A stretch of DNA of 42,736 nt from Candidatus Magasanikiibacteriota bacterium (lineage in GTDB: Bacteria; Patescibacteriota; Patescibacteriia; Magasanikbacterales; JACTTX01): contig JACTTX010000010.1 of the NCBI GenBank assembly GCA_015661005.1, forward strand, positions 1 through 42,736. The letters are read 5' to 3'. The notes below the pieces were generated by a model. The model saw only the letters and a list, made by a program, of their open reading frames with translations. It did no database searches and was not told the origin of the DNA. This document shows positions 38,957-42,736 of this stretch, in pieces; position 1 is the first letter of the stretch; every line of letters begins with the position of its first letter. The translations under genes were made by a program, and so were the position numbers.

Positions 38957-39708
38957 TCAACGCTTCCAATATTTTTTTAAATCGTAATACTCTTCCCACT
39001 CCGCTATAGCTTTCTCATATTCTTCGGGCAATCCAATGTCTTTAAAAGAGGCATCTTTCAAAGTCTGACGATAACCTCCGTTTGTTCTATATAGTTTTTA
39101 CTTGTGCTATCCGGCAACAAATCTTTTGAAACCAACGCCCAACCCGAACGGGGTGCGATTTTAGCAAAGTCATCCACACCGATCATTTCTTCTCTCCATC
39201 CCCCTACCATATCAAGCAGTCTTCCTTTCTCTTCTTTCTCCCAGCGTTCTGTCAGCAACGTGTTCATGGCTTCCAATGACATGGGTGTGCCGTCAGCGGT
39301 CTTATCCACTCGCAAGACAAGCATTTGTCCAAGCTTCTCAGCTCTTTCAAGTTCTTTAACAGAAAACGGAATACCCGGGACTTCCGCTAGATGAACACCA
39401 AAAGTTTTCTCTACTTCTTTAGGTCCGAAAACGTTTTCTTTGCCGAGCTTTTCAATTGCCGCTTCAATCTGCTCTGCGACAGCTCCCACAAGTTTTGTTT
39501 CCGGTGTTGCCACTCGTTTTGCCGTTTCCGTGGTTCCAGCTTTTTCTTCTCGTTCCAGTCCCTTGCGCTTAGATTCAGTGGTCTTTGGTTTAAATTCCAC
39601 CAATGTTGTCGAATGACCGCCTTGTCCCCCTCTTTGCTCTATTGGCATAGTAGTTGTCAACTTAAGTGAGTAAACAAAACTATGAGAATAGTACTTTAAC
39701 CATTCCAT
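38957..39708 (-). CDS. Hypothetical protein with an apparent C-terminal frameshift
   Basis: ORF 39058..39708 (PFSVKELERAEKLGQMLVLRVDK...WALVSKDLLPDSTSKNYIEQTEVIVRL*); coding-like continuation in another frame: GYRQTLKDASFKDIGLPEEYEKAIAEWEEYYDLKKYWKR*, ending at 38957. Confidence 0.65.
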
Positions 39709-39761
39709 ACTACGTATCGTTATCTAACAATTACTCTTTTCATTTTCACTGCCCGAGCCAA

Positions 39762-42736
39762 TTATTCTTTTCTCTCCAACCTCACATAATGAATCTCCTC
39801 ACCCATTTCTTCAACTTTTTCATCTGCTGTAATTTTAAAACCAAGCCTTTCTGCATACTTTTGAATAATAGCATAAGAGCCGGCCCGCATTCTTGTCTCA
39901 ATGGGAAGTTTTAAAAGCTTGGGATCATCATTAATTCTTTCTACTGCTTTTTGAATAAGCTCCATGCCTACTCCTTTCTTTTGCCACTCTGGCAAAACTG
40001 CAATGTCATGAACATAAACAACTTTTTCCCTTTCTTTTTCTGCTGGATAAGCGAGCAAATAGCCGCGCAGAACTCCTTTTTTATCAAACCAGCCCAGATT
40101 TAAAGGGGTGATTTTTTCTTTTTCGCAGGCAATGGAAGACGCGCAGAGAAGATTTTGGATTTCCGGCAAACCTTCAAAATGGCCTGTTGCTCCATAGGTT
40201 TTTTCTTCAATATAGGCAACCGGCAAAGTCAGGGAAAAATCAATTTCTTCTACCCCGGTTTTTGGTTCAGGAAGCTTTTCTGGTTTTGATTCAAGGAAAA
40301 GAGAAAAAACCTCGTCTGCTTTTTTATCAGTGTAAGAAACAAGACTGGCAGGAAGATAGCGGTTTTCAGCGGTTGGAAGGCCGGTCAGATAATCGCTATA
40401 GCCAGTGCCAATAACAACTGGTGAATTTTCAAATTTAGGATTGGTTTTTTTGTAGGCTTCAAAGAATTCTTTGTAAATGCGGGAAATGATTGTTTCATTA
40501 TTGACAATCAATCTTTTGATAAAATTCTTCTGTCCTTCAACATTGTCGCAGGCAATAACTGGAATTTGGTTTTCTTTGAAAAAACGCTCTAAAAAATCAG
40601 GACCAAAAATTTCAGTTAAAGAAACCTTGCCTTTTTCTGCCTGACTATATAAAGCGGCAAGCTCTTTTGGCTCATATCGCCAATCTTGGGTTAAGATGCT
40701 TTGAGCAATGACTCTTTTTTTAATCTCGCCTGTTTCTGGATCAGGGCTTTCCAAAGATATAGACATAATCCCGCAGTTGGGATTCCAAAGATATTCATTA
40801 TGCTTGCCTGAACCCCAAGGCATACAGCAGACTGTGTCGTCGCCAACCGTGGCTGCGGCCGGATGGCTTTTTTGTAAAATTTCTGCTGTTAAAGTTACTT
40901 TATCTGCCTTAAATGCCTTGCCGTAAACTTCTGTTTGCAGATAACTGCTAAAGGATGAAAAAACTTCATTGCCTGGATTTATAATTTTCCGCAAATCAGG
41001 TTCGGATTGGATCCTCTTGAACACTTCTTTTAACGAAAGGCCGGAGAAATCACCAACTTTAAATTTGGTTTCTGGAATTGGTAATTCTTTGAAACGAGAA
41101 GCAAGATAACCTAAATTGTAATGGATCTTTTGTTCGGCAAAAAAATTTAAAAGCTTTTCTAATTTGTAGTTTTCAAAATTCTCTTTAGTTCGGTTTTGAG
41201 TAAAATGAATTCTGGCTTCGTCGCCTGACTCATAATCCTGGAGGGCAAGCAACCGCTCAATTTGACTTTGAGGCTCTTCCTTGCCTTTTAATGCTCTGGC
41301 CTTAATTTGTTCTTTGTTTTCCTCAAAATATTTTAAAAGCGGCTCTTTTAAAAAAGAAAGGATTAGAAACTGATTAAGCAGGCTGGCAAACGTTTTATCT
41401 TGGCTTTTTTCTCTGCTCTCTGTTTCATGAGCTAAAAACTCCAAAAGGTTGGTTTTGATTGCCTCCTGCTTTCCTTCCTGCTCGCGCATCTTTCTTCGGG
41501 TTACTTCGTCAGTTAGGTTTACTTCAAACTCTTGGCGATAGGCAAGAAAAGGGCAAAGCCGGTCTAAAATTCCTTTTGGTAAAGCATCGCGCAGTTCTTG
41601 CGGCAAAAGATCAATCCCAATCCTATCTCGTTCTTCACCAATTTCTAAATAGCGGGCTGGGGTCAAGGCCTGATGCAGCTCTTCTGGCGCATGCTGGTCA
41701 GAACGGTTTAAAAACTCTTTAGGATTCTGCCAATATTCTTTAACTGCTTCAGTAGAAACCGTGGGATGAGAAAAAAGAGATTCTAAGTAACTCGCTAAAA
41801 CAGGATTTTCTTCTTTTAAAGCTTCAAGCTGGTTTTTATCCTCAACTGAAAGAGCCCGACGCAGTTCAACTCCTTTGACAAAAGCTCGAAAAGAAGCAAA
41901 ACGATTCTCTTTTTGAAATTCTTCAGCCCAGTATGGCTGGTAATTTTGAATAACTTGGCCTAAAACCTGATAAGCGTCACGGCCGTGCCAGTCAACAGTA
42001 GTATCATAAGGAACTTGAGTCAAAATTTTCTGCAAGATATCTTTGGACAGTTTGGCTACTGCTCCATGAATAAAGAAAAGAGCGTCATGGCGGTTGTAAT
42101 CGCGAAGATATTCCCAGGAAACTCTGGAACCCAAAACTTTTTCCAAATCGCCAAACCATTTGACGGTCTCTTCTGACCAGATTTCCCTTTCCTTTAACAA
42201 AGAATGAAGATTTTCTGTCTCTTTATAATTAACTGTTACTTTTTCTAATTCCTCTTTTAACCCGCCGTCTAAAATCTTAGCCGTCTCTTGACCGTCTAAA
42301 TAACCGGACATTTTGCTTTGCAAAACAGGGCTTATCTTTTCCCAGTCAATTTTTTCCATCCTCTGTTCTTTGCTTTGAGCTTTCAGGTAATCAATAAGTT
42401 TTCCCCAAGATCTTACACCCCATGACTTTTTCTTTTCCAAAAAACCCTGCAAATTTGGATATTCTTTTTCTTTATGAACAATCTGTTCTTCAATTTTCAA
42501 ATCAGATTCAAAATAAATTAAAAACTTTTCAAACTGATCAAAAGTCTCCTCAACCATTTTTATTCCGCCAAATTTTTCAAGGTTATAAGCCACTGCATCT
42601 CCACTCCCTGCTTCAAGCAGTTTTAAGGCAATTTCTTTGTGGTCAAGGCCTTGGAATTTTTCAAGGTTATAAGCCACTGCATCTCCACTCCCTGCTTCAA
42701 GCAGTTTTAAGGCAATTTCTTTGTGGTCAAGGCCTT
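39762..42736 (-). CDS. Large protein: 28-aa N-terminal repeats, uncharacterised middle, C-terminal GNAT acetyltransferase; 5' end beyond the window
   Basis: Repeats YNLEKFQGLDHKEIALKLLEAGSGDAVA; middle GDDTVCCMPWGSGKHNEYLWNPNCGIMSISLE...; C-term YVHDIAVLPEWQKKGVGMELIQKAVERI. Frame open to 42736. Confidence 0.85.
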   Translation of the reverse strand, partial: GLDHKEIALKLLEAGSGDAVAYNLEKFQGLDHKEIALKLLEAGSGDAVAYNLEKFGGIKMVEETFDQFEKFLIYFESDLKIEEQIVHKEKEYPNLQGFLEKKKSWGVRSWGKLIDYLKAQSKEQRMEKIDWEKISPVLQSKMSGYLDGQETAKILDGGLKEELEKVTVNYKETENLHSLLKEREIWSEETVKWFGDLEKVLGSRVSWEYLRDYNRHDALFFIHGAVAKLSKDILQKILTQVPYDTTVDWHGRDAYQVLGQVIQNYQPYWAEEFQKENRFASFRAFVKGVELRRALSVEDKNQLEALKEENPVLASYLESLFSHPTVSTEAVKEYWQNPKEFLNRSDQHAPEELHQALTPARYLEIGEERDRIGIDLLPQELRDALPKGILDRLCPFLAYRQEFEVNLTDEVTRRKMREQEGKQEAIKTNLLEFLAHETESREKSQDKTFASLLNQFLILSFLKEPLLKYFEENKEQIKARALKGKEEPQSQIERLLALQDYESGDEARIHFTQNRTKENFENYKLEKLLNFFAEQKIHYNLGYLASRFKELPIPETKFKVGDFSGLSLKEVFKRIQSEPDLRKIINPGNEVFSSFSSYLQTEVYGKAFKADKVTLTAEILQKSHPAAATVGDDTVCCMPWGSGKHNEYLWNPNCGIMSISLESPDPETGEIKKRVIAQSILTQDWRYEPKELAALYSQAEKGKVSLTEIFGPDFLERFFKENQIPVIACDNVEGQKNFIKRLIVNNETIISRIYKEFFEAYKKTNPKFENSPVVIGTGYSDYLTGLPTAENRYLPASLVSYTDKKADEVFSLFLESKPEKLPEPKTGVEEIDFSLTLPVAYIEEKTYGATGHFEGLPEIQNLLCASSIACEKEKITPLNLGWFDKKGVLRGYLLAYPAEKEREKVVYVHDIAVLPEWQKKGVGMELIQKAVERINDDPKLLKLPIETRMRAGSYAIIQKYAERLGFKITADEKVEEMGEEIHYVRLERKE
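42571..42736. repeat. Identical 84-bp coding tandem repeat truncated by the window end
   Basis: 42571-42654 and 42655-42736 are identical over all 82 comparable bases; 84 bp = 28 codons. Confidence 0.97.

What the first reader, a model, noticed from the sequence alone, without database searches (positions are those of the whole stretch)
39762..42736. Giant protein: identical 28-aa solenoid-like repeats + uncharacterised core + GNAT
The N-terminal region has 28-aa repeats (YNLEKFQGLDHKEIALKLLEAGSGDAVA), identical at DNA level, followed by ~600 aa without recognised domains. A distinctive middle reads GDDTVCCMPWGSGKHNEYLWNPNCG...AQSILTQDW...VIACDNVEGQKN...VIGTGYSDYLTG, and a GNAT domain ends the protein. 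Repeat array as variable recognition arm plus acetyltransferase effector is a plausible interaction or toxin-like system; no signal peptide can be judged because the start is missing.
Basis: partly seen in the sequence, partly recalled or inferred. Interest (0 to 1): 0.65.

Follow-up and report, generated by a model that had tools for sequence, protein, structure and literature searches.

The report
Helical-repeat protein with double acetyltransferase module
The truncated gene at the window's edge encodes a large, apparently cytoplasmic protein of tiny symbiont-like bacteria (Patescibacteria) in which a helical-repeat arm is joined to two acetyltransferase-type (GNAT) domains, one so divergent that no family library recognises it; it is a new variant of a known enzyme kind, not a demonstrated toxin.

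Summary
ORF 39762..42734(-), 990 aa, runs off the contig end inside an 84-bp/28-aa repeat (two exact copies). The only other copy of this array in the genome lies at the end of contig C4, beside the probable gene start. Low-GC DNA on both contig ends supports one gene split by assembly.

The 'uncharacterised middle' is not domain-less. AlphaFold models residues 610-990 well, with GNAT topology twice. Foldseek of the motif domain alone returns mostly GNAT folds, but with weak E-values (best 5.6e-3). The C-terminal module is therefore most likely a double GNAT: a divergent first domain with 16 invariant residues, then a second with the acetyl-CoA P-loop QKKGVG in the window protein.

About 30 relatives (24-45% identity) occur across Patescibacteria, sparsely and with mixed phylogeny. 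Nothing was found in phage, plasmid or viral collections. Complete relatives lack a signal peptide or transmembrane segment and carry different helical N-terminal arms.

Best reading: a solenoid-guided cytoplasmic acetyltransferase whose substrate sits between the two GNAT domains, as in MshD and Eis. The toxin idea has no positive support. Function, substrate and activity are untested. On contig C4 the presumed frame has a TAA at codon 11, so gene integrity is unresolved.

The parts
39762..42734 (-). Truncated open reading frame (990 aa seen, 5' end beyond the contig): helical repeats + helical core + double-GNAT module
   Evidence: Open frame to the contig end; relatives encode the same architecture in frames of up to 1809 aa
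42564..42736 (-). 28-aa (84-bp) repeat array, two exact DNA copies at the contig end; unit GLDHKEIALKLLEAGSGDAVAYNLEKFQ; residues 1-57
   Evidence: TRF; two helices per unit in the model, H4-13/H17-22 and H32-41/H45-50; array continues on contig C4
41520..42182 (-). Conserved, mostly helical core domain, residues 185-405 (..NRHDALFF..; LPQELRDAL..LCPF)
   Evidence: pLDDT mostly 80-97; aligned in relatives; function unknown
40290..40907 (-). Divergent first GNAT-like domain, residues 610-815
   Evidence: Strand/helix order of a GNAT; Foldseek hits mostly GNAT folds; no Pfam, NCBIfam or PDB sequence match
40779..40880 (-). Signature motif I..KSxP....G.DT.CCMP(F/W)GSGK.N.Y.(F/W)NP, residues 619-652
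   Evidence: S623, P625, G631, C637, M638, G641 and Y648 invariant in 24 aligned sequences
40698..40706 (-). AQS motif, residues 677-679
   Evidence: Q678 and S679 invariant
40536..40547 (-). DNVE motif, residues 730-733, after strand E726-729
   Evidence: D730, N731 and E733 invariant
39765..40259 (-). Second GNAT domain, residues 826-990
   Evidence: PF00583 2.1e-7; Foldseek of the whole model: Naa10, PaiA, Naa50 and other GNATs, E to 3e-5
39966..39983 (-). Acetyl-CoA pyrophosphate (P-loop) motif Q918-K-K-G-V-G923
   Evidence: Matches the Gln/Arg-x-x-Gly-x-Gly/Ala consensus (PMC4964394); found in the C-half of the window clade only, 3 of 28 rows

Best explanation
The gene encodes a large cytoplasmic acyltransferase of Patescibacteria. 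An N-terminal alpha-solenoid of 28-aa helical repeats and a helical core hold a partner molecule and present it to a C-terminal double-GNAT module. In that module the second GNAT domain binds acetyl-CoA through the QKKGVG loop. The first GNAT domain has lost the P-loop and supplies the wall of the substrate pocket with its invariant Cys/Tyr/Gln/Asp-Asn-Glu residues, so that an amine of the substrate is acetylated in the cleft between the two domains. The arm evolves quickly by repeat duplication and replacement, while the module stays. Shown by computation: the repeats, the family, the conserved residues, the P-loop, the predicted folds and the lack of an export signal in complete relatives. 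Inferred: that it is an active acetyltransferase, that the cleft is the active site, that the arm recruits the substrate, and that the substrate is an amine.
For: GNAT signal and P-loop. The model of 610-990 is mostly at pLDDT 80-97 with two successive GNAT-type strand/helix orders. The first domain folded alone has pLDDT 85 and pTM 0.81, and its PDB neighbours are mostly GNATs: KacT, TmcA, AtaT, malonyl-CoA decarboxylase, NAA60, GNA1, SSAT. The viral library also gives weak two-domain matches to N-myristoyltransferase. Nineteen residues are invariant over 24 relatives. Arms differ in period: 28, 35, 37 or 39 aa. No hydrophobic export signal. Precedent: in MshD and Eis the substrate sits between an active and a non-catalytic GNAT domain (PMC4964394), and double-GNAT proteins with one active domain are a known class (PMC12219266).
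Against: The best Foldseek E-value for the first domain is only 5.6e-3 and TM-scores are low (0.32-0.48). No profile similarity was found between the two halves (hhalign probability 6% over an 18-column end overlap). Outside the window clade the second domain lacks the P-loop consensus in all 25 other rows, so catalysis by that domain may not be ancestral. The strongest conservation is in the first domain, which fits equally well with that domain being the catalyst. The reading frame on contig C4 has an early TAA.
Confidence: 0.5

Rival explanations
1. The first, divergent domain is the real catalyst: a GNAT-derived transferase using the invariant Cys637 and the Gln/Asp-Asn-Glu set (for example through a cysteine acyl intermediate, or with a donor other than acetyl-CoA). 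The second GNAT domain is a regulatory or structural partner that keeps a working acetyl-CoA site only in the window's clade.
For: 16 of the 19 invariant residues of the family lie in the first domain; the P-loop of the second domain is consensus only in the window clade; a relative next to the window's closest homologue keeps the motif domain but has lost the P-loop region of the second.
Against: The window protein itself has a canonical P-loop and a significant GNAT match in the second domain. Atypical P-loops still bind acetyl-CoA in some GNATs (PMC4964394). Cys637 as a nucleophile is only a conservation argument.
Confidence: 0.25
2. An effector or toxin delivered into a host or competitor cell, the repeat array serving as the target-recognition arm.
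For: Low-GC, patchily distributed, apparently horizontally moving gene; rapidly evolving arm; double-GNAT effectors exist (VipF is listed as a double-GNAT protein in PMC12219266); GNAT toxins KacT and AtaT are among the structural neighbours of the first domain.
Against: No signal peptide or transmembrane segment in complete relatives; no conserved partner gene; no secretion context seen; neighbours in the first six loci are unrelated genes. Resemblance to KacT/AtaT is at the level of the GNAT fold and equally includes housekeeping enzymes.
Confidence: 0.12
3. A decaying or broken gene in this genome: the early TAA on contig C4 means that the full protein is not made.
For: ATG (C4:337) lies 3 nt after the upstream stop codon, but codon 11 is TAA (C4:305-307), and no ATG/GTG/TTG follows in frame before the array.
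Against: The remaining 990 codons are open and keep all invariant residues; a single base error at the end of a short-read contig is plausible; the link C4-C26 is itself inferred.
Confidence: 0.13

Closest known systems
Double-GNAT acetyltransferases MshD (mycothiol synthase) and Eis
   Same: Two GNAT folds in one chain, one with a consensus acetyl-CoA P-loop and one without or inactive; substrate pocket between the domains in MshD and Eis (PMC4964394)
   Different: No sequence match to any of their families; the first domain has a unique CCMPFGSGK/AQS/DNVE signature; fused to about 600 aa or more of helical arm
N-myristoyltransferase (NMT)
   Same: Tandem GNAT layout; weak two-domain Foldseek matches to viral NMTs (prob 0.41-0.63, about 400 columns)
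   Different: No Pfam NMT match; the relative orientation does not superpose (rmsd 20-22 A)
NatA complex (Naa10 GNAT with the Naa15 alpha-solenoid)
   Same: A helical-repeat solenoid positions a GNAT enzyme; Naa10 is the top structural hit of the whole model (3e-5); the solenoid comparison rests on general knowledge
   Different: Here both parts are in one chain, the repeats are a 28-aa unit of no Pfam family, and there is a second GNAT; the Naa10 hit reflects the common GNAT fold only
GNAT toxins KacT / AtaT (toxin-antitoxin)
   Same: Structural neighbours of the divergent first domain (E 0.006-0.02)
   Different: No antitoxin gene, no sequence match, very different size

Membership tests
GNAT superfamily (second domain) | Significant match to a curated GNAT profile | tested here: met
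   PF00583 2.1e-7, 31.6 bits against a cut-off of 20.7
GNAT superfamily (second domain) | P-loop Gln/Arg-x-x-Gly-x-Gly/Ala between strand 4 and helix 3 | tested here: met
   Q918KKGVG923, after strand 903-913 and before helix 922-936
GNAT superfamily (first domain) | GNAT topology | tested here: met
   Strand/helix order in two models; GNAT folds dominate the Foldseek list, but with weak scores
GNAT superfamily (first domain) | P-loop consensus | tested here: not met
   No consensus match in any of 28 rows; the domain is called GNAT-like by fold only
MshD / Eis / NMT / FemX families | Sequence match to the family profile | tested here: not met
   None of 24 family members matches such a family in Pfam or NCBIfam at E 0.01
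Double-GNAT class (structural) | Two GNAT folds packed with a shared cleft | tested here: inconclusive
Known helical repeat families (HEAT, TPR, ANK, PPR) | Pfam match of the repeat region | tested here: not met
   No such match for the window or for ten repeat/family proteins
Secreted toxin / effector | N-terminal export signal or transmembrane helix | tested here: not met
   Complete relatives have hydrophilic N-termini; no 19-residue hydropathy peak above 1.7 (crude test); the window's own start is missing
GNAT toxin-antitoxin (KacT/AtaT type) | Adjacent antitoxin gene | tested here: inconclusive
   Neighbours are a glutaredoxin-like gene on C4 and a 216-aa gene of a Patescibacteria domain family; no known antitoxin matched, but a new one cannot be excluded
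Acetyltransferase activity | Acyl-CoA binding and transfer | not testable with these tools
   Needs protein

The most novel reading that the evidence does not exclude
A previously undescribed, horizontally moving enzyme family of Patescibacteria in which the divergent GNAT-like domain with invariant Cys637, Tyr648, Gln678-Ser679 and Asp730-Asn731-Glu733 is a new catalytic centre, and in which repeat gain and loss in the helical arm retargets it to different partners.
Probability: 0.15. Interest if true: 0.7.

Novelty: new variant of a known kind. Interest (0 to 1): 0.42.

Why it matters
Patescibacteria have very small genomes, so a gene family spending 3-5 kb on one accessory protein that recurs across many lineages must do something useful. 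The double-GNAT assignment turns an uncharacterised giant protein into a testable enzyme with named residues, and the invariant residues mark a divergent GNAT-like domain that no library describes. The exact DNA repeats show that helical arms in these bacteria still change by duplication.

Tried and rejected
Assembly duplication as the source of the repeats: rejected, see contig C4 and relatives. A phage or plasmid gene: no relative in the viral, phage or plasmid collections (the viral scan used one short pattern only). Defence system: no PADLOC hit for the window protein; single-member hits DpdF and LeoBC in the family, not followed. Homology of the two halves by profile: not detected. Idea that another C-terminal domain found on 28-aa repeat proteins (GxCxA...NP...NR type, G012/L105) or the TGWCTAG domain of L115 is a distant cousin of the motif domain: profile comparison gave no support (under 1%), so it was dropped. 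Solved-structure search by sequence: nothing. Literature searches found no description of this family in the open-access library held. Weak Pfam matches of the repeat proteins (ACCA, GIPC1_GH2 and others) look spurious.

Full report
Observation. The frame 39762..42734 on the minus strand is open for 990 codons to the contig end. Its first 166 bases are two exact copies of an 84-bp unit. The window is contig C26 of an 870-kb, 44-contig genome. The same array occurs at one other place in that genome, the start of contig C4, at 96% identity. There the frame holds a helical cap and diverged units (RGYAVA, SGYAVA) before it runs off that contig. The two contig ends share a low-GC stretch: 36-43% over most of window 39000-42736 and 36% over C4 1-600, against about 45-55% elsewhere. 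I conclude that one gene was cut by the assembler inside its array. Array breakage recurs: the relative L044 begins in the middle of such a unit, as do other loci. On C4 the ATG at position 337 follows the stop of a glutaredoxin-like gene by 3 nt, but codon 11 is TAA (C4:305-307). Whether that is an error or a broken gene cannot be told here.

Family. A protein search of 95 genomes found the module in 8, including the window's own. A profile search over 380 genomes of the phylum found it in 7, again including its own. A scan of the species-level genome collection gave 31 loci (24-45% identity), nearly all in Patescibacteria lineages (Parcubacteria, Magasanik-, Buchanan-, Nomura-, Wolfe-, Uhr-, Kerfeld-, Berkel-, Collierbacteria, Gracilibacteria/SR1). 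The three loci labelled Cyanobacteria, Obscuribacterales and Bdellovibrionales are on contigs of 3.5-7 kb and may be mis-binned (not tested). Nothing was found in viral contigs, phages or plasmids. In a tree of the C-terminal module the window groups with a Parcubacteria and a Buchananbacteria sequence (100/100). The same-order Magasanikbacteria sequences fall elsewhere. With the low GC and the patchy occurrence this suggests horizontal transfer; gene loss and paralogy are not excluded.

Domains. Sequence libraries recognise only the C-terminal GNAT. AlphaFold with 24 sequences gives confident models for the repeats (about 85), the core 190-400 (about 80-97) and most of 610-990, with poor linkers at 58-172 and 437-609. 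Residues 610-815 show the order strand, helices, strand, strand, helices, strand, helix, strand expected of a GNAT. Modelled alone, this domain reaches pLDDT 85. Its PDB neighbours are mostly GNAT-fold proteins, although the best E-value is only 5.6e-3 and TM-scores are 0.3-0.5. I therefore call it GNAT-like by fold, with fair but not complete confidence; profile comparison of the two halves found no sequence relation. The whole model hits GNATs at up to 3e-5, which could come from the second domain alone.

Conservation. Over 24 sequences the invariant residues are S623, P625, G631, C637, M638, G641, Y648, Q678, S679, D730, N731, E733, G776, P795, Y801, D803, E843, K845 and Y892; 16 of the 19 lie in the first domain. 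The second of the two adjacent cysteines (637) is invariant; the first (636) is not. The acetyl-CoA P-loop consensus (Gln/Arg-x-x-Gly-x-Gly/Ala; PMC4964394) is met in the second domain of the window clade (QKKGVG, QKTGVG, QKSGIG) and in none of the 25 other rows, most of which have a glycine-rich but atypical loop. More distant relatives (L134, L135) keep both domains behind a different N-terminus.

Arm. The 28-aa unit GLDHxEIAxKLIxxGxGxxVAxNLxKF forms two short helices. It is found in 30 of 381 genomes of the class, on proteins with various C-termini. Across 76 units the most variable positions are 18, 16, 22, 28, 19 and 14, around the turn and the second helix; this is compatible with a binding surface but is not a recognition code. 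Other family members use repeats of about 35-39 aa or no clear repeat. Near-identical neighbouring units at the DNA level occur in several arrays (0.87-0.94), so recent duplication is usual.

Mechanism. Double-GNAT enzymes are known, usually with one active domain (PMC12219266). In MshD and Eis the substrate lies between the domains and the inactive domain helps to form the site (PMC4964394). The same reading fits here: second domain for acetyl-CoA, first domain for the substrate wall, arm for recruitment. Fold, family and residues are computed; activity, substrate and recruitment are inference. The main rival makes the first domain the catalyst, because conservation is strongest there. The toxin reading lacks an export signal, partner gene or mobile-element association.

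Verdict. Interest is moderate.

Noticed in passing
window 39000-42736 and L034 (contig C4) 1-600: Low-GC stretch on both contig ends: glutaredoxin-like 84-aa gene, the giant gene and the 216-aa gene form one compositional island.
   Followed up: partly
window 39058-39708 (-): 216-aa gene downstream; its C-terminal 130 aa is a domain found in larger Patescibacteria proteins, with two paralogues in the same genome (C44:52187-52588 and C44:55045-55449), one on a 950-aa frame with an ATPase P-loop-like GESGTGKT.
   Followed up: partly
L034 (contig C4) 305-307: TAA at codon 11 of the presumed reading frame of the giant gene; sequencing error or broken gene.
   Followed up: partly
L041 7159-10164, L105 3984-6380, L138-L150: Another C-terminal domain (conserved GxCxA, FNP and TNR motifs) on large Patescibacteria proteins, some with the 28-aa repeat; 11 of 286 genomes; no library match for the two examples scanned, and no profile relation to the motif domain.
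   Followed up: partly
L115 1-1992: 28-aa repeats fused behind a domain with GTGWCTAG...AAIRM...IAEVRGIAENQN, reminiscent of PcfJ-like proteins (resemblance from memory, untested).
   Followed up: no
L043 9133-13209: Tandem paralogue beside the window's closest homologue: 28-aa-type repeats and the motif domain, but the P-loop region of the second GNAT is lost.
   Followed up: partly
L036 and L037 (G076:C24, both ends): The same gene stands in inverted orientation at both ends of one 58.6-kb contig: probably an assembly artefact.
   Followed up: no
L134, L135, L136: Divergent subfamily (GNYTDCCMPFG) with the double-GNAT module behind an unrelated N-terminus.
   Followed up: partly
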